Below, one piece after another: positions 579 to 8,397 of a stretch of DNA of 8,499 bases (position 1 is its first letter; every line of letters starts with the position of its first letter). Source of the DNA: JBBIVP01 sp037439705 [NCBI: bacterium] (GTDB lineage Bacteria > JBBIVP01); NCBI GenBank assembly GCA_037439705.1, contig JBBIVP010000012.1:2191-10689 (forward strand). Direction: 5' to 3'. Made by a program: the position numbers and the translations under genes. The notes below the pieces were generated by a model. That model did not search any database, was not told where the DNA came from, and saw only the letters and a list, made by a program, of their open reading frames with translations.

Positions 579-1891
579 AAATTTACCATAATTTATTGAG
601 TTTTGCTGGAATTTTCTTTTTTGCCTTTTTAGCGTGGCTTTTCTCAAAAAATCGCAGAAATCTCAACTGGAGGGCTATCTTCTGGGGAATTTCTCTGCAA
701 CTCATTTTCGCTTTTTTTATATTCTACTTTCCCTGGGGTGCCATCATATTTTCATGGATAAATTCGCTGGTAGTAAAACTTCTATCCTTTGCCACCGCTG
801 GAACATATTTCGTGTTCGGGGTTCTTTCCATCTCTCCTGGACAGACAGGACCCTCCGGAGAAACTTCTATCGGATTCATTCTCGCCTTTCAAGCTCTTCC
901 CCTGGTAATATTCTTCTCCGCCCTCATGTCCCTTCTTTATTACTTCGGAATTATGCAAAAAATAATAAAACTCTTCAGCTACATATTTACAAAACTTATG
1001 AAAGTGAGTGGAGCGGAATCACTTTGCACAGCAAGCAATATATTTGTCGGAATTGAATCTGCTTTCACGATAAGACCCTATATAGAAAAAATGACCCTTT
1101 CAGAACTCTGCACCGTCCTCACAGCGGGAATGGCAACAATTGCATCAACGGTTATGGCTCTTTATGTGGGAATTTTGAAGGACACATTTCCCACCATAGC
1201 TGGACATCTTGTCTCTGCTTCCATCCTCAGCGCTCCAGCAGCCATTGTAATATCAAAACTCCTTTATCCTGAGGACGGAAAACCTCTCACTCTGGGTAAA
1301 GTTGTTGAAACCTACTATGAAAAACCTAAAAGCTGGGTTGAGGCTGTAATAATTGGTTCAAATGAGGGTGTAAAATTGTGTGTTGGAATTGTTGCCCTTC
1401 TTCTTTCATCCCTTGCCCTTTTAGCGATGTTAAACTGGTTTGTTGGGGCTGTGGGAGACCTGGTGGGAACCATTTTGAATTTAAAACTTGAATTATCAAT
1501 AGAAAAAATTCTTTCCTACATCTATTATCCAATATCATTTATGCTCGGGATTCCTCTTAAAGACATTCCAGCTGTTTCCACACTCCTTGCAGAAAGAAAC
1601 ATTCTCACTGAACTGGTATCATATCAACACCTCAATCAATACATTTCATCAGGAATCATCAGCGATCCGCGTACCATAGTAATAACCGTTTATTCTCTAT
1701 GTGGATTTGCCCATATCGCGTCCCTTGCCATATTTGTTGGAGGACTTTCTGCTATCGCTCCGAGCAGAGCAAAAGATATTGCTGGGCTTGGTTTTAGGAG
1801 CTTATTTTCTGCCATTCTTGCCTGTCTTATGACAGGTGCAATTGCTGGCGCCCTTTATACACCTTTTCAACAACAAATTTTGTCAAAATAA
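575..1891 (+). CDS. Concentrative nucleoside transporter, CNT/NupC family
   Basis: This 438-residue inner-membrane protein should import nucleosides or related solutes with Na+ or H+. Its layout matches the family: an N-terminal three-helix region (residues 5-60, with an NWRAIFWG motif), a gate-like region (about 100-130, AFQALPLVIFFSALMSLLYY), hairpin 1 with the SGAES and SNIFVG motifs (145-160), a TM region around 180-200 (AGMATIAS), and the C-terminal core with TELVSY (345-350), SLCGFAHIAS (374-383) and PSRAKDIA (396-403). Length is normal for bacterial CNTs. The family's substrate loop, usually GQTEAP or GMVEAP, reads GIESAF (159-164) and is one residue shorter; the usual Asn of CGFAN is His380. 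Glu161 and Glu346 appear to keep the two key acidic positions. The ATG overlaps the carrier stop as ATGA, implying translational coupling. Substrate is uncertain because of the altered loop. Confidence 0.9.
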   Translation: MKIYHNLLSFAGIFFFAFLAWLFSKNRRNLNWRAIFWGISLQLIFAFFIFYFPWGAIIFSWINSLVVKLLSFATAGTYFVFGVLSISPGQTGPSGETSIGFILAFQALPLVIFFSALMSLLYYFGIMQKIIKLFSYIFTKLMKVSGAESLCTASNIFVGIESAFTIRPYIEKMTLSELCTVLTAGMATIASTVMALYVGILKDTFPTIAGHLVSASILSAPAAIVISKLLYPEDGKPLTLGKVVETYYEKPKSWVEAVIIGSNEGVKLCVGIVALLLSSLALLAMLNWFVGAVGDLVGTILNLKLELSIEKILSYIYYPISFMLGIPLKDIPAVSTLLAERNILTELVSYQHLNQYISSGIISDPRTIVITVYSLCGFAHIASLAIFVGGLSAIAPSRAKDIAGLGFRSLFSAILACLMTGAIAGALYTPFQQQILSK

Positions 1892-1918
1892 AAATATGAA
1901 ACTCCAAATTTTCTCCAG

Positions 1919-1940
1919 AACCCAAAATAACTGGGTTTTA
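1919..1940 (+). terminator. Possible weak intrinsic terminator after the nucleoside transporter
   Basis: A perfect 6-bp stem, AACCCA (1919-1924) with TGGGTT (1932-1937), closes a 7-base loop and runs into a short T-rich stretch (TTTTA, counting the last stem bases). It lies 28 bases after the transporter stop, in the only gap between two blocks of overlapping genes. The stem and the T-run are short, so readthrough is likely. Confidence 0.45.
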
Positions 1941-1948
1941 TTGAAATT

Positions 1949-1971
1949 TTCTCAAAGATATGAGAATTTTA
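1949..1971 (+). promoter_or_regulatory. Second hairpin just before the ferredoxin start
   Basis: TTCTCA (1949-1954) pairs with TGAGAA (1961-1966) around a 6-base loop and is followed by TTTTA. The shape is that of a small terminator. However, it ends only 9 bases before the GTG start at 1976, and its 3' arm contains the only GAG element that could serve as a ribosome binding site. It could therefore act as a terminator for the upstream block or as a structure masking translation of the next gene. No convincing promoter for the downstream block was found; a TTGAAA at 1941-1946 has no good -10 partner. Confidence 0.35.
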
Positions 1972-1975
1972 GAAT

Positions 1976-2200
1976 GTGCAAGAAATAAGGAAGAAAAAGG
2001 TAATAATAGATATTGAAAGATGTAAAGGGTGTGAACTCTGTGTTCATTATTGTCCAAAGAAATGTTTGAAAATAGGCGAAAAGTTCAACCAGAAAGGCTA
2101 TTACTATGCTGTGTTTTTTGATGAAGAAAAGTGCACTTCTTGTGCTATATGTTCCAATATGTGTCCGGATGTAGCTATTGAAGTGTGGAAGGAAGAATGA
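1976..2200 (+). CDS. Ferredoxin-type delta subunit of 2-oxoacid:ferredoxin oxidoreductase (2x[4Fe-4S])
   Basis: This 74-residue protein holds two classical [4Fe-4S] motifs. Cluster 1 uses Cys16, 19, 22 and 26 and cluster 2 uses Cys53, 56, 59 and 63, each followed by proline (YCPKK, MCPDV). An extra Cys30 lies just after the first cluster. Small proteins of this kind are the delta (KorD/VorA/PorD-like) subunit that carries electrons from the TPP-bound oxoacid to soluble ferredoxin. The assignment rests on the alpha subunit that follows immediately. The start is GTG: a TAG at 1970-1972 closes the frame upstream and no other usual start precedes the conserved core. The ribosome binding site is poor (GAG in a hairpin arm). 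The stop overlaps the next ATG as ATGA. A general ferredoxin would look the same without that neighbour. Confidence 0.88.
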   Translation: MQEIRKKKVIIDIERCKGCELCVHYCPKKCLKIGEKFNQKGYYYAVFFDEEKCTSCAICSNMCPDVAIEVWKEE

Positions 2201-3300
2201 AAGAGCTGATAAAGGGGACAATTGCGGTTGCAAGGGGAGCGATAGATGCAGGATGTAGATTTTATTTCGGTTATCCTATAACCCCTCAAAACGAAATTCC
2301 TGAATATCTTTCAAGGGAACTCCCAAAGGTCGGAGGGGTTTTTATCCAAGCAGAAAGCGAAATAGCTTCAATAAACATGCTTATGGGAGCAGCAGCGACA
2401 GGAGCAAGGGCTATGACTTCATCGTCTGGACCCGGTATTTCCTTAAAACAGGAAGGAATATCCTATATAGCAGGAAGCGAAATTCCAGGAGTTATTGTGA
2501 ACATATCAAGGTGTGGTCCGGGTCTGGGAGGTATTTCTCCTTCTCAGGGAGATTACTTTCAGGCAACAAGGGGAGGAGGACATGGGGACTACAGGGCAAT
2601 TGTTCTTGCTCCTGCATCTGTTTCCGAGATGTATTATCTGACAATAAAAGCCTTTGAATTAGCTGATAAATACAGAAATCCTGCTTTACTCCTTTCAGAT
2701 GCAGCCCTGGGACAGATGAAAGAGTCAGTTGAGTTGATTCCACCTGAAATAAAAAAAATTGAAAAAAATTGGGCATTAACAGGAGCAAAAGGAAGAAAGC
2801 AAAGGGTTTTAAAAACACTTCATCTGGGAGAATTGGAACTTGAAAAAAAGATATGGAGGATTCACGAAAAATACGAAAAATTAAAGAAAGAAGATACTAT
2901 GGTAGAAGAGTTTATGGTAGATGACGCGGAAGTAGTTGGTGTTGCTTTTGGGTTTGCAGCAAGGATATTGAAATCGGCCTGTGCGTCACTCCGGGAAGCG
3001 GGATATAAAGTTGGAATGATAAGACCTATAACCCTTTTCCCATTTACTGAAGAATCAATTAAAAAAGCATCTGAAAAATGTAAAAAGTTTCTCGTTGTTG
3101 AAATGAATACAGGTCAGATGGTTGAGGATGTGATGATGTTTAACAAAAATGGGAAAGAAGTTTACTTTTATGGAAGAGCACCAGGGGTTGGCTCTATTCC
3201 ATATCCAGAAGAAATAGAGGTTGTGATGAAATATCTCTGCGGTGAGAAAGTTCATTTTGAACCCATTCACCATCTTTCCTTCAGAAAGGTGGCAGGATGA
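2197..3300 (+). CDS. 2-oxoacid:ferredoxin oxidoreductase alpha subunit (KorA/VorB-like)
   Basis: This 367-residue subunit belongs to the enzymes that oxidatively decarboxylate 2-oxoacids (2-oxoglutarate or branched-chain 2-oxoacids) to acyl-CoA and reduce ferredoxin in anaerobes. The N-terminal pyruvate-ferredoxin oxidoreductase-like domain shows the hallmark GYPITPQNEIPE (25-36), a QAESE strand (51-55), TSSSGPG (74-80), GGHGDY (127-132), and DKYRNPALLLSDA (157-169). The C-terminal transketolase-like domain includes KVGMIRPITLFPF (271-283) and an EMNTGQM motif (302-308). These fit the KorA/VorB group better than pyruvate PorA; the exact substrate cannot be decided. I chose ATG 2197 over an in-frame GTG at 2185 because it overlaps the ferredoxin stop as ATGA, has purine-rich GGAAGGA just upstream, and matches the usual N-terminus. 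The beta (TPP) and gamma subunits normally encoded next are missing here. Confidence 0.92.
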   Translation: MKELIKGTIAVARGAIDAGCRFYFGYPITPQNEIPEYLSRELPKVGGVFIQAESEIASINMLMGAAATGARAMTSSSGPGISLKQEGISYIAGSEIPGVIVNISRCGPGLGGISPSQGDYFQATRGGGHGDYRAIVLAPASVSEMYYLTIKAFELADKYRNPALLLSDAALGQMKESVELIPPEIKKIEKNWALTGAKGRKQRVLKTLHLGELELEKKIWRIHEKYEKLKKEDTMVEEFMVDDAEVVGVAFGFAARILKSACASLREAGYKVGMIRPITLFPFTEESIKKASEKCKKFLVVEMNTGQMVEDVMMFNKNGKEVYFYGRAPGVGSIPYPEEIEVVMKYLCGEKVHFEPIHHLSFRKVAG

Positions 3301-4472
3301 AGGATGTGGTAATCATAGGAGGAGGACCCGCAGGAGTAACCGCTTCACTCCTTTTCTCAAAAAAGGGGAAAAGCACTACTCTCATTACAACTAAATGGAA
3401 TTTGGCTTTTTCATCCGGAGCATTTGACCTTTTTATTCCTCCTTCTGAAAATCCATCCACTCCTGAGGAAGCGCTCTCCTCCCTTGTTAAAAATTATCCG
3501 GAACACATTCTTGTTAAAATTACAAATAAAAAAAGGGAAATTATCAGGGAAGGTATTGAGGCTATAAATTCAATATATCCGTTTTTTAAAATTGTAAAAG
3601 GAAATGAAAAATTTTACCATTATATCTCAGATATGGGTAATTCTAAAAAAAGCTGGGGAGCTTTAAAATGGGTGGCATCAATGGAAGAATTTGAAAATCT
3701 CAAAGAGAAAATCGTCGTTCTCCCTTCTAATTTCATTGGAAGAAAGGCAAAACAGGTGGTGGAAATTATAAACTTGTGGACGCACTGTGATTTTCAACTT
3801 ATTGAGGTAAAAGGCTCTCTTGAAAGCTATTATGAAACACTTAAAGACCCGGAAGTGAAAACTCTATTGATTTCTATCACAAAGGAAAGAAATGAAAATT
3901 TTCTCCTTCCCCCTATATTCTGTGGAGATTACGGAAAGCCAAAATTTGTGATGGAATTTCTTCCTACTTTTGAATCCCTCAACGGAATCTGGTTAAAAGA
4001 TTCTGCTATTGAAATGATGACAAAAAATGGAGTGGAAATAATTGAGGAAGAAGTGATTGAACTGGAAATAAAAAACGGGAGGGTTATAAAGGCTATTACA
4101 GATACCGGAAGGGAGGTTAAAGGAGATGTATTTATTATTTCTACGGGAAAATTTCTCGGTGGTGGAATGAATTTCAGAGGAGAAAGAATAAAAGACTGGC
4201 TCGGAAAATTTTTGACCACTTCAAAAACTTCAAAAGACCACAGCGTACTTCTTACAAATCCTCATCCGCTCCATTCACAGGGAATTTTTTCTATCGGGTT
4301 GAAAATAGATGAAAAAATGAGAGTATATATTGATGAAAACAAAAAGTTTGATAACCTTTTTGCATGTGGAATGATAATTTCAAATGTGGACCCGTTTTCG
4401 TGGTCCATGGGATTCGGATTTTCATCATTGACAGCATATATCCTTTCAAAAAATATTGATGAATCCCAATAA
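3297..4472 (+). CDS. GlpB-like FAD/FMN-dependent oxidoreductase
   Basis: This 391-residue protein starts with a Rossmann dinucleotide-binding motif, VVIIGGGPAGVTAS (residues 4-17). FSSGAFDLF (38-46) then matches the SSGS/AFDLL signature of GlpB, the subunit of anaerobic glycerol-3-phosphate dehydrogenase that passes electrons from GlpA to the membrane anchor GlpC. Later landmarks are FIISTGKFLGGGM (279-291), equivalent to the GlpB ASGSFxSGG stretch, and a C-terminal flavin-closing segment NLFACGMI...DPFSWSMGFG (353-374). The last part lacks the usual GCGSGVA-like wording. Length is close to E. coli GlpB (about 419). No GlpA, GlpC or glycerol gene lies nearby. The start overlaps the oxidoreductase stop as ATGA, with AAAGGTGG upstream, so the two are probably co-translated. 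It could serve another acceptor or substrate; fold assignment is strong, function is not. Confidence 0.8.
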   Translation: MKDVVIIGGGPAGVTASLLFSKKGKSTTLITTKWNLAFSSGAFDLFIPPSENPSTPEEALSSLVKNYPEHILVKITNKKREIIREGIEAINSIYPFFKIVKGNEKFYHYISDMGNSKKSWGALKWVASMEEFENLKEKIVVLPSNFIGRKAKQVVEIINLWTHCDFQLIEVKGSLESYYETLKDPEVKTLLISITKERNENFLLPPIFCGDYGKPKFVMEFLPTFESLNGIWLKDSAIEMMTKNGVEIIEEEVIELEIKNGRVIKAITDTGREVKGDVFIISTGKFLGGGMNFRGERIKDWLGKFLTTSKTSKDHSVLLTNPHPLHSQGIFSIGLKIDEKMRVYIDENKKFDNLFACGMIISNVDPFSWSMGFGFSSLTAYILSKNIDESQ

Positions 4473-6558
4473 GGTATCAGTTATTATAGTAACCTATAAC
4501 AGCGAAAATGACCTTGAAAAGCTTATTCCATCACTTTTATCTCAAACATATAAAGAAATTGAAATTATTGTGATTGATAATAACTCACAGGACAATTCAA
4601 TTGACCTCATAAAAAAACATTTCCCAGAGGTGAAAATCATCAAAAATTCTCAAAATCTCGGATTTGCTCATGCGGTCAATCAGGGTATAAACCTCTCATC
4701 CGGCAAGTTCCTACTTCTTTTAAATCCTGATACCATTCTAAAAGAAGATTTTATAGAAAAACTTTTTGAAACCTTAAAAAATCATCCCGAAGCAGGAGGA
4801 GTATGTGGAAAACTGCTCAGAGAAGATGGTCAAAAAATTGATTCATCAGGAATATTTTTTTCGCCGTTTTTAAGGCATTTTGACAGGGGTCAGGGTGATG
4901 ACCCTGAAAAATATGATAAAGAGGTTTATGTTTTTGGAGTGAGTGGAGCTGCTGCGCTGTTCAGAAGGGAAATGCTTGAAGATTTAAAAATTGAAGGGGA
5001 GTATTTTGATTCATCATTTTTTGCATACAGAGAGGATGCAGACCTGTGCTGGAGGGCTCAGCTTCTGGGCTGGAAATTTTTATATGTTCCATCGGCAATC
5101 GGGTTTCACCGAAGGAGAGTGTTCCCTGGAAAAAGAAAGGATTTACCGCCATTTATAAACATGCATTCAGTAAAGAATAGATTTTTGATGAGGATAAAAA
5201 ATCAAACAATTCCTTTATTTCTTACCATTCTCTTCCCATCACTTATAAGGGATATAGGAATTATCATATACCTCCTTCTGTTTGAAAGAACCTCCCTTAA
5301 GGCATTCAGAGAGATTTTTTCACTCATTCCGCGAGCGCTCAGATGGAGGAGGGAAATAATGAAAAAGAAAAGGGTGAATTTCTTTAAACTCCTTCCGTGG
5401 TTTTTATGGAAAATGGAGGAAAGGACATATCTCAAAATCGCCTTTATGGGAACAAGAGGAGTTCCGGCTGGTTACAGTGGATTTGAGACTTTTGTTGAAC
5501 AAACCGGAAAAAGACTTTCAAAATCTCATAAGGTTTTCGTTTACAACAGAAGCCATCACATAAAAATGAGGGGCGAATACCTTGGAATGAAATTGATAAA
5601 ACTTCCAACAATCCCACTTAAACACACAGATACAATAGTTCACACATTCCTTTCGGTTCTTCACGGAGCATTTATGGGTTATGACATAGTTTATATATGC
5701 GGTGTTGGAAATAGCATCCTTTCGTTTGTCCCAAAAATTTACGGAGCAAAAACAGTTCTGAATGTGGACGGAAAGGACTGGACGAGAGAAAAATGGGGAA
5801 AATTTGCAAGGTGGTTTCTTAAAATGAGTGAAAGAATAGCAACTCTTTTTCCTGATGTGGTGATTGCGGACTCAAAGGCAGTTGAAAATTATTACCTCAC
5901 AGCATACCGCAAAAAAACCGTTATGATTCCTTATGGAGCGGAGATGAGATATGTTCCTCCTTCAAAATGCCTTAAAAAATTTGAACTTGAGCCGAGAAAA
6001 TACATACTTTTTGTGGGAAGATTGGTGCCAGAAAATGGAGCCCACCTTCTTATTGAGGCATACAAAAAAATAAAGACCACTTCTTTTCCCCTTGTTATAG
6101 TTGGCGATGCACCTTACATGGAAAAATACAAGAAGGAATTGAAAAAAATGGCAGGAGAAATACCTCCACCCAAAAAGGTGGTTTTTACTGGCTTCCTTGT
6201 AGGAGATGACTATATGGAAATCTCAAACCATCCCTACATATATGTCCTTGCATCAGGAGTTGGAGGAACCCATCCCGTTCTAGTTGAACAGATGAAAGCA
6301 GGGAATTGTGTGCTTGTGAATTCCATAAATCCTGCTAATATAGAGGTTGTGGAGGACGCCGGATTTTATTTTGACGGTGAGAAAGGCGCAGAGGAATTAA
6401 AAGAAAAAATTGATTTCCTTCTTCAAAATCCAGAAATTGTTGAAAAATACAGAGAGCAGGCAAGAAAGAGAGCAGAAGAGGTTTACAACTGGGAGAAAAT
6501 CGTAGAAAAGTACGAAGAATTGTTTCTAATTCTGAGAGCCGGGAGGAAATTTCACTGA
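4459..6558 (+). CDS. Two-domain glycosyltransferase, GT2 fused to GT4 (DUF1972-like)
   Basis: From ATG 4459 this is a 699-residue protein with two glycosyltransferase modules. The N-terminal GT2 (GT-A fold) domain, about residues 5-245, has VSVIIVTYNSE (6-16), VIDNNSQD (38-45), NLGFAHAVNQG (66-76), the metal-site equivalent NPD (89-91) and an acidic YREDADLCWRA segment (190-200). A hydrophobic stretch (about 250-275) and a basic linker follow. The C-terminal GT4 (GT-B fold) domain begins with FMGTRGVPAGYSGFETF (329-345) and has NVDGKDW (435-441) and GGTHPVLVEQMKAGN (602-616), the wording of the rhamnosyltransferase-like DUF1972 group. In it the first Glu of the EX7E motif is replaced, a trait of that group. 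A role in polysaccharide or glycan assembly at the inner face of the membrane is likely. An in-frame TTG lies just upstream at 4456; ATG is preferred. No ribosome binding site is visible; the 14-base overlap with the previous gene suggests coupling. Confidence 0.88.
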   Translation: MNPNKVSVIIVTYNSENDLEKLIPSLLSQTYKEIEIIVIDNNSQDNSIDLIKKHFPEVKIIKNSQNLGFAHAVNQGINLSSGKFLLLLNPDTILKEDFIEKLFETLKNHPEAGGVCGKLLREDGQKIDSSGIFFSPFLRHFDRGQGDDPEKYDKEVYVFGVSGAAALFRREMLEDLKIEGEYFDSSFFAYREDADLCWRAQLLGWKFLYVPSAIGFHRRRVFPGKRKDLPPFINMHSVKNRFLMRIKNQTIPLFLTILFPSLIRDIGIIIYLLLFERTSLKAFREIFSLIPRALRWRREIMKKKRVNFFKLLPWFLWKMEERTYLKIAFMGTRGVPAGYSGFETFVEQTGKRLSKSHKVFVYNRSHHIKMRGEYLGMKLIKLPTIPLKHTDTIVHTFLSVLHGAFMGYDIVYICGVGNSILSFVPKIYGAKTVLNVDGKDWTREKWGKFARWFLKMSERIATLFPDVVIADSKAVENYYLTAYRKKTVMIPYGAEMRYVPPSKCLKKFELEPRKYILFVGRLVPENGAHLLIEAYKKIKTTSFPLVIVGDAPYMEKYKKELKKMAGEIPPPKKVVFTGFLVGDDYMEISNHPYIYVLASGVGGTHPVLVEQMKAGNCVLVNSINPANIEVVEDAGFYFDGEKGAEELKEKIDFLLQNPEIVEKYREQARKRAEEVYNWEKIVEKYEELFLILRAGRKFH
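6542..6546 (+). promoter_or_regulatory. Ribosome binding site of the potassium channel gene
   Basis: GGAGG at 6542-6546 lies 11 bases before ATG 6558, inside the last codons of the glycosyltransferase gene. It is the clearest internal site in the gene block and supports the chosen start. Confidence 0.55.
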
Positions 6559-7541
6559 TGGATTATAAAAAAAAGATATACACCCTTTTATCTCTCCTTT
6601 TTCTTTTAATAGCAATTGGAACTATCGGGTATACGCTCATTGAAGGATGGAATGTTCTTGATTCTCTATATATGGTAATAATTACACTTGCCACAGTTGG
6701 ATACAGAGAAGTGGGGGAGCTCTCACCTGCGGGAAAGGTTTATACAATGCTTCTCATCCTTGCTGGTTCAGGACTTTTAGCTTACAGCATAACGAATTTG
6801 AGTTTACTTTTCGTTGAAGGAAAAATAATAGAAATTTTAAGGAGCAGAAGAATGAAAAAGGAACTGGAAAAACTTGAGAACCATTACATAGTTTGTGGTG
6901 CTGGAAGAACAGGCATCCACATAATAGAAGAACTAAAAAAATTGAAGTACAAAGTGGTCGTGATTGACATTTCTCCTCCATCAATGGAGGATGTTTACTG
7001 GCTCCAGAAAGATGCTACACATGATGCTACCCTCCTTGAAGCAGGAATAATGAGAGCAGAAGGATTAGCCTCCGCTTTACCATCAGATAAAGAGAATCTT
7101 TTTGTGGTTCTAACAGCGAGAAGTTTAAATCCTTCAATAAGAATTGTTACAAAATGCGTAGACGATTATAATGAAACAAAAATGAGAAGGGCTGGAGCAA
7201 ACGCGGTTGTTTCTCCAAACAAAATAGGAGGATTAAGAATTGCTTCCGAGCTTTCACGCCCAACAGTTGTCTCATTTCTTGACAAAATGTTAAGAGCAGG
7301 AGATGCAACATTAAGGGTTGAAGAGGCAAAGGTCCTGGGGCGCTCATCTTATGTTGGAAAAAAGGTAGAGGTTATAAAGAAGGAAATAGAAAAGAACTTA
7401 TCCCTCCTACTTGTTGCCATTTCAAGGGGAGGAGAATATATATTCAATCCACCATCGGAAATGAAAATAAAAGATGATGATGTTCTTATCGTAATGGGTA
7501 ACATAGATTCTGTAAATGAGCTCAGAAAACTCCTTTCTTAA
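6558..7541 (+). CDS. Potassium channel with RCK (TrkA-N/TrkA-C) regulatory domain
   Basis: This 327-residue inner-membrane protein has a two-helix pore followed by a cytoplasmic ligand-binding module, the MthK/Kch-like layout. TM1 covers about residues 7-28, the pore helix 33-45, the selectivity filter TVGY 46-49 and TM2 59-84. The filter is followed by Arg50 rather than the common Gly (TVGYREV instead of TVGYGEV), a variant I recall in some bacterial channels. The RCK N-lobe (about 108-235) opens with YIVCGAGRTG (110-119), a GxGxxG nucleotide motif, and has Asp137 after the second strand, typical for NAD(H), ATP or ADP binding. A TrkA-C-like domain occupies about 250-327. It probably forms a gated K+ channel for ion homeostasis. 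Its ATG shares one base with the upstream stop (TGATG). No clear terminator was found behind it. Confidence 0.92.
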   Translation: MDYKKKIYTLLSLLFLLIAIGTIGYTLIEGWNVLDSLYMVIITLATVGYREVGELSPAGKVYTMLLILAGSGLLAYSITNLSLLFVEGKIIEILRSRRMKKELEKLENHYIVCGAGRTGIHIIEELKKLKYKVVVIDISPPSMEDVYWLQKDATHDATLLEAGIMRAEGLASALPSDKENLFVVLTARSLNPSIRIVTKCVDDYNETKMRRAGANAVVSPNKIGGLRIASELSRPTVVSFLDKMLRAGDATLRVEEAKVLGRSSYVGKKVEVIKKEIEKNLSLLLVAISRGGEYIFNPPSEMKIKDDDVLIVMGNIDSVNELRKLLS

Positions 7542-7794: not shown

Positions 7795-8397
7795 ATGGTG
7801 TTGAATTCTAATGTTCTCGTATTAAACAAACTATTTGTTCCTGTTCATATAACAACAGTAAAAAGGGCATTGTGTCTTCTTTATGCAGGAATTGCCCGTG
7901 CTATGGATAAAAATTTCAGACTCTTTGATTTTAAAAGCTGGTCTGAATTATCCGTAGAAGTCGGTGAAGAAGGCATTAGAACAGTGGATAAAATAATAAA
8001 GGTACCGAGGGTAATTGTTCTTATAACTTATGACAGGCTCCCGAGAAGACATGTTAGGTTCTCCCGGTACAATATCTATTTAAGAGACAGAAACATATGT
8101 CAGTACTGCGGCAAAGTTCTATCAAAAGAAGACCTCAATATAGACCATGTAATACCAAGGTCAAGAGGTGGAAAGACAACCTGGACAAATGTTGTATTGA
8201 GCTGTATTGAGTGTAACAGAAAAAAAGGAGGAAGACTTCCAGAAGAGGCAGGTATGCAATTGATAAGAAAACCACAGAAACCAAGATGGTCGCCCATCTA
8301 TATGCTAAAAGCAGAAAATTTAAAATATGAGGAATGGGCACCTTTCTTCAACCTTGTTGATGCTGCTTATTGGAATACAGAGCTTGATAATGACTGA
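7795..8397 (+). CDS. HNH endonuclease family protein
   Basis: This 200-residue protein contains a complete HNH nuclease domain at about residues 95-160. Zinc-binding pairs are Cys102/Cys105 (ICQYCG) and Cys137/Cys140 (CIECN). The catalytic ββα-metal core is Asp117-His118 (NIDHVIPRSRGG), Asn132 (TWTNVV) and Asn141. It belongs to a widespread bacterial group that opens with a LNSNVLVLN-type strand (3-11) and a VPVHITTVKRA segment (15-25), contains RLPRRHVRFSR-like basic residues (81-91), and ends in an EAGMQLIRKPQKPRW segment; residues 171-200 form an acidic, aromatic tail. The group's biological role is not known to me; DNA nicking or cleavage is expected from the motif. ATG 7795 follows the predicted promoter directly and has no ribosome binding site. 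GTG and TTG follow in frame and could also start. The 3' end overlaps an ATPase gene by 8 bases. Confidence 0.9.
   Translation: MVLNSNVLVLNKLFVPVHITTVKRALCLLYAGIARAMDKNFRLFDFKSWSELSVEVGEEGIRTVDKIIKVPRVIVLITYDRLPRRHVRFSRYNIYLRDRNICQYCGKVLSKEDLNIDHVIPRSRGGKTTWTNVVLSCIECNRKKGGRLPEEAGMQLIRKPQKPRWSPIYMLKAENLKYEEWAPFFNLVDAAYWNTELDND

What the first reader, a model, noticed from the sequence alone, without database searches (positions are those of the whole stretch)
1976..4472. 2-oxoacid oxidoreductase delta and alpha subunits without beta and gamma, followed by a GlpB-like flavoprotein
In the usual kor/vor clusters the alpha gene is followed by the TPP-binding beta and then the gamma gene. Here the slot is taken by a GlpB-like flavoprotein joined by an ATGA overlap, and the genes after it are unrelated. 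Either the missing subunits are encoded elsewhere, or this alpha-delta pair works with an unusual partner. A flavoprotein co-translated with the ferredoxin and alpha subunits could be an electron acceptor or donor.
Basis: partly seen in the sequence, partly recalled or inferred. Interest (0 to 1): 0.6.

Follow-up and report, generated by a model that had tools for sequence, protein, structure and literature searches.

The report
Split genes for a keto-acid oxidoreductase
Two subunit genes of a common anaerobic enzyme that splits 2-oxo acids sit here without their two partner genes, most likely because the partners lie elsewhere in the genome, as seen in another bacterial phylum; the flavoprotein gene next door is probably just a neighbour.

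Summary
The gene order is real: ferredoxin-like delta (1976-2200), VorB-type alpha (2197-3300), GlpB-like flavoprotein (3297-4472), no beta or gamma in 8.5 kb. Alpha scores 509 bits (cut-off 399) and keeps 58 of 61 invariant columns, so it looks like a working subunit needing a normal beta. Of 80 related loci, 48 have beta; 32 do not, 25 of them with at least 2 kb held downstream. Of the 32, 31 fall in one clade of 32 rows, labelled Nitrospirota save one. In 6 of 16 such genomes a VOR-type beta-gamma pair without alpha was found elsewhere; the other 10 were not resolved. Their betas form a matching clade. The window's alpha lies outside that clade, among 23 relatives with beta, so its separation seems independent. 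No relative of the flavoprotein was found in the 80 loci. Overlaps are general here: 6 of 8 junctions. Best reading: a split VOR with an unrelated flavoprotein neighbour. Untested: the window's own beta-gamma (genome not held) and its close relatives.

The parts
1976..2200 (+). delta subunit (2x[4Fe-4S] ferredoxin-like), GTG start
   Evidence: relatives shortly before VorB alpha, e.g. 53% in L004
2197..3300 (+). VorB-type alpha subunit of a 2-oxoacid:ferredoxin oxidoreductase
   Evidence: NF005507 509 bits, cut-off 399; PF01855 + PF17147; 58 of 61 invariant columns kept
3297..4472 (+). GlpB-like flavoprotein without GlpA or GlpC in the window; probably a neighbour, not a subunit
   Evidence: 22-26% identity to five GlpB or GlpB-like proteins

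Best explanation
The delta and alpha genes encode half of a four-subunit VOR-type 2-oxoacid:ferredoxin oxidoreductase (branched-chain or related 2-oxo acid + CoA + oxidised ferredoxin -> acyl-CoA + CO2 + reduced ferredoxin; reaction from family knowledge). The TPP-binding beta and the gamma subunit are encoded elsewhere in the genome and assemble with them in trans. The GlpB-like flavoprotein is a separate redox protein that shares a tightly packed gene row by position only. Shown: gene identities, absence of beta/gamma here, conserved alpha, and the same kind of separation in Nitrospirota. Inferred: that this genome carries the matching beta-gamma pair, the substrate, and the independence of the flavoprotein.
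For: Alpha is above the VorB cut-off and keeps 58 of 61 invariant and 26 of 26 near-invariant columns of 49 relatives. 32 of 80 related loci lack beta; 25 of these have at least 2 kb held downstream, and 4 of the 25 have delta directly before alpha, the window's layout. In 6 of 16 genomes with such an alpha, a VOR-type pair, beta 51-60% and gamma 39-50% identical to L002's, lies elsewhere with no alpha in the stretch held. On one 2.29 Mb contig (G010) alpha is at 794,893 and the pair's gamma at 1,839,901; the only other alpha match at E<=1e-10 lies in a 573-aa fused frame at 38,754. The six split betas plus one operon-borne Nitrospirota beta form one clade, 99/96, mirroring the alpha clade, 99/99. 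Within the six, alpha and beta distances correlate (r 0.61; 7 of 720 label permutations as high).
Against: The window's genome is not held, so its beta-gamma pair was not seen. The window alpha is not in the Nitrospirota clade; it sits with 23 relatives that all have beta (97/97), so the precedent is by analogy, not descent. It departs from 3 of 61 invariant columns, level with the worst relative, L025 (3 of 64), in leave-one-out. Distances of the split rows to the operon rows correlate only weakly to moderately (0.23-0.62). For the other 10 of 16 Nitrospirota-type genomes the pair was not among the fetched loci, and the alphas of L032 and L016 lie near a contig end.
Confidence: 0.72

Rival explanations
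1. Subunit sharing: alpha-delta has no beta-gamma of its own and borrows that of another 2-oxoacid oxidoreductase in the same cell.
For: Genomes with a VorB alpha commonly hold several gamma-family (PF01558) matches: 2 to 12 per genome in 18 of 18.
Against: Six Nitrospirota genomes with a VorB alpha lacking beta beside it hold a VOR-type pair of their own.
Confidence: 0.1
2. Relic: an ancestral delta-alpha-beta-gamma operon lost beta-gamma and the remaining pair is decaying.
For: Long terminal branch (0.57) and three departures from invariant columns.
Against: Open frames, all eight delta cysteines present, 58 of 61 invariant and 26 of 26 near-invariant alpha columns kept.
Confidence: 0.1
3. 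Unusual partner: the GlpB-like flavoprotein works with alpha-delta, for example as electron acceptor or donor.
For: 4-nt ATGA overlap with alpha; in GlpABC, GlpB is thought to take electrons from GlpA (passages of PMC11962113); no GlpA or GlpC beside it here.
Against: No relative of it near any of 80 related alphas; overlaps also join unrelated genes here; alpha alone lacks the beta half of the TPP site (family knowledge, recalled).
Confidence: 0.06

Closest known systems
VOR-type (VorB) 2-oxoacid:ferredoxin oxidoreductase operon, delta-alpha-beta-gamma
   Same: Alpha above the NF005507 VorB cut-off; delta directly before alpha, as in most of the related operons.
   Different: Beta and gamma absent behind alpha.
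Separated VOR subunits of Nitrospirota
   Same: VorB alpha, sometimes with delta, without beta/gamma nearby.
   Different: Window alpha is outside the Nitrospirota clade; its own beta-gamma not seen.
[quoted passage not shown]
   Same: Best family hits; keeps 28 of 44 residues invariant in five GlpB or GlpB-like proteins, E. coli GlpB included.
   Different: Far below GlpB cut-offs, 391 aa against 419-451, no GlpA or GlpC neighbour.

Membership tests
VOR-type 2-oxoacid:ferredoxin oxidoreductase | alpha scores above the VorB model cut-off | tested here: met
   509 bits against 399
VOR-type 2-oxoacid:ferredoxin oxidoreductase | 8-cysteine ferredoxin-like delta beside alpha | tested here: met
   delta models themselves below cut-off
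VOR-type 2-oxoacid:ferredoxin oxidoreductase | beta and gamma in the same operon | tested here: not met
   this is usual gene order, not a need of the enzyme
VOR-type 2-oxoacid:ferredoxin oxidoreductase | beta and gamma encoded somewhere in the genome | not testable with these tools
   own genome not held
GlpB (GlpABC) | score above a GlpB equivalog cut-off | tested here: not met
   96 bits against 313; 94 against 174
GlpB (GlpABC) | glpA and glpC adjacent | tested here: not met
   neighbours are VorB alpha and a glycosyltransferase

The most novel reading that the evidence does not exclude
The delta-alpha pair and the GlpB-like flavoprotein form a genuine redox unit that joins a trans-encoded VOR core, so that electrons from 2-oxo acid oxidation pass through the delta clusters to a flavin instead of, or besides, free ferredoxin.
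Probability: 0.06. Interest if true: 0.65.

Novelty: new member of a known kind. Interest (0 to 1): 0.25.

Why it matters
It turns an attractive reading (a new alpha-flavoprotein enzyme) into a probable separated operon. It also shows, in 6 Nitrospirota genomes, VOR-type beta-gamma pairs lying apart from the VorB alpha, so annotation that asks for beta and gamma beside alpha would miss or misname such an enzyme.

Tried and rejected
Recurrence of delta-alpha-GlpB: P0003 was searched in phylum samples around nine anchor genomes and in 12 chosen genomes. The samples overlap: one search drew the same genomes as and repeats its three hits, and searches drew from one group. Five distinct genomes matched (G004, G043, G061, G096, G280), at 26-30% identity over 160-177 residues of the C-terminal half (G004 also 44% over 45 N-terminal residues). 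Six of the nine phylum searches returned nothing, and the tool warns that an empty answer without a known positive shows nothing; one search scored at most 4 candidates in each genome listed. The window's own phylum was not identified, so recurrence in close relatives is untested.

Four viral-contig scans gave no relative of the flavoprotein, alpha or glycosyltransferase; the HNH query gave 17 loci that were not studied. Plasmid searches: P0003 matched 2 Proteus records, 34% over a third of the protein; alpha matched 61 records, all under 60%.

Structure prediction of P0003 from its single sequence failed (mean pLDDT 34.4); no fold search was made. Solved structures matched P0003 only weakly by sequence (best E 4.6e-6, part of the protein).

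Paper searches (listings and abstract starts seen) showed no title or abstract start about a GlpB-VOR link or separated VOR genes in Nitrospirota. They are five searches of open-licence papers, so this is no claim that none is in print. Read in part: PMC8115632 (found passages, and section 17), on other POR/OGOR clusters of Nitrospira marina; PMC11962113 (found passages only).

Full report
What is there. The window carries, all on the plus strand, a biotin carrier protein (54-578, possibly longer upstream), a NupC-type nucleoside transporter (575-1891), a ferredoxin-like delta (1976-2200), a VorB-type alpha (2197-3300), a GlpB-like flavoprotein (3297-4472), a glycosyltransferase fusion (4459-6558, or from TTG 4456), a TrkA-type potassium channel (6558-7541), an HNH protein (7795-8397) and the start of a P-loop ATPase, read by eye from 8390. 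Alpha is above the VorB cut-off; the flavoprotein is below the cut-off of every GlpB model listed. No beta or gamma was found in the 8.5 kb.

Is the overlap telling? Six of the eight gene junctions overlap: biotin carrier-NupC, delta-alpha, alpha-GlpB, GlpB-glycosyltransferase, glycosyltransferase-channel and HNH-ATPase; three share the same 4-nt ATGA (that script had the last start one base early, at 8389, and I read it as 8390). Unrelated genes are joined in the same way, so the alpha-GlpB overlap is weak evidence of shared function. Promoter-like and terminator-like sites in 1850-4600 do not exceed shuffles (7 against a mean of 7.6; 2 against 2.2).

Relatives of alpha. In 48 of 80 a VOR-type beta follows, 45 of these with gamma. 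In 32 of 80 no beta was found; 25 of the 32 have at least 2 kb held downstream, and 4 of those 25 have delta directly upstream. In 0 of 80 was a relative of the flavoprotein found by tblastn at E<=0.01; the stretches held run from 3.2 to 21 kb, and a very diverged relative could escape this search.

Tree. Thirty-one of the 32 loci without beta fall in one clade of 32 rows (99/99). Its rows are labelled Nitrospirota save L027, titled only 'Bacterium'; the 32nd row, L043, keeps alpha-beta-gamma together. The remaining locus without beta, L046 (Bacillota), ends at alpha. The window lies outside, in a set of 24 (97/97) whose other 23 members all have beta. The end branch of the window is long (0.57), so its exact place is unsure. 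Its missing beta-gamma thus seems to be a separate event.

Where the Nitrospirota partners are. PF01558 (gamma) matched in 18 of 18 genomes searched, 16 of them with an alpha lacking beta (it also matched in 11 of 14 control genomes, so the family alone is not telling). Of the 25 loci laid, 6, from 6 of these 16 genomes, hold a VOR-type beta-gamma pair; in wider stretches of 5.9-12 kb no alpha or delta relative was found beside them. Hosts: those of L006, L016, L018, L032, L064 and L067. The alphas of L032 and L016 lie near a contig end, so there the separation rests mainly on the beta side. For the other 10 genomes the pair was not among the loci laid, and this was not pursued. On the 2.29 Mb contig of G010 the alpha lies at 794,893 and the pair's gamma at 1,839,901. 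The only other alpha match there at E<=1e-10 is in a 573-aa fused frame at 38,754; a third gamma, at 532,587, has a weakly similar (24%) alpha of another kind beside it. The six split betas and L043's beta form one clade (99/96; 46 of 48 operon betas used). Alpha and beta distances correlate at 0.83 over 46 loci with beta in place and 0.61 over the six split pairs (7 of 720 permutations as high); the split rows' distances to the operon rows correlate less well (0.23-0.62).

Is the window's alpha fit to work? It keeps 58 of 61 columns invariant in 49 relatives and all 26 near-invariant ones. In the leave-one-out control relatives depart 0 to 3 times, so the window is at the upper end. The best solved matches are alpha subunits of 2-oxoacid oxidoreductases, such as 1yd7 and 8ys5. 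In this enzyme class the TPP site needs the beta half (recalled family knowledge), so delta-alpha should not work alone.

The flavoprotein. It is 22-26% identical to five GlpB or GlpB-like proteins, 22% to E. coli GlpB, which is itself 23-26% identical to the other four; it keeps 28 of 44 residues invariant in those five. In G004 and G280 a GlpC-like gene follows the GlpB-like gene, and a GlpA-like gene lies beside it in G004 and probably in G043; these names are my reading of translations, not a family scan. The four GlpB-bearing genomes checked show no VorB alpha in the 3-8.6 kb held; G280's locus came later and was not checked. Its role here is unknown; I take it as an independent flavin oxidoreductase, with no confidence in any substrate.

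Verdict. An ordinary VOR alpha-delta pair in an unusual gene order. A separated operon is the most likely explanation; the alpha-flavoprotein enzyme is not excluded but has no positive evidence beyond adjacency.

Noticed in passing
L113 6398-6853, L116 4821-5276, L117 5939-6430, L118 7014-7472: In 4 of 6 split beta-gamma loci an ORF of 151-163 aa with a GNAT-acetyltransferase look (by reading only) follows or overlaps gamma.
   Followed up: no
L043 1266-3605: One Nitrospirota locus nested inside the separated clade keeps alpha-beta-gamma together, so separation happened more than once, was reversed, or the operon was transferred.
   Followed up: partly
L075 (title: Calditrichales bacterium MX18-03): Its genome's phylum sample shares genomes with that of a Bacillota record, and its alpha and beta sit beside a Clostridia row; the record title looks misassigned.
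   Followed up: no
window 4459-6558: A GT2 glycosyltransferase fused to a DUF1972/GT1 rhamnosyltransferase-like half in one protein of about 700 aa.
   Followed up: no
window about 1920-1945: A small inverted repeat with a T-rich tail between nupC and delta, seen by eye, may end the upstream unit; the scan did not list it.
   Followed up: no
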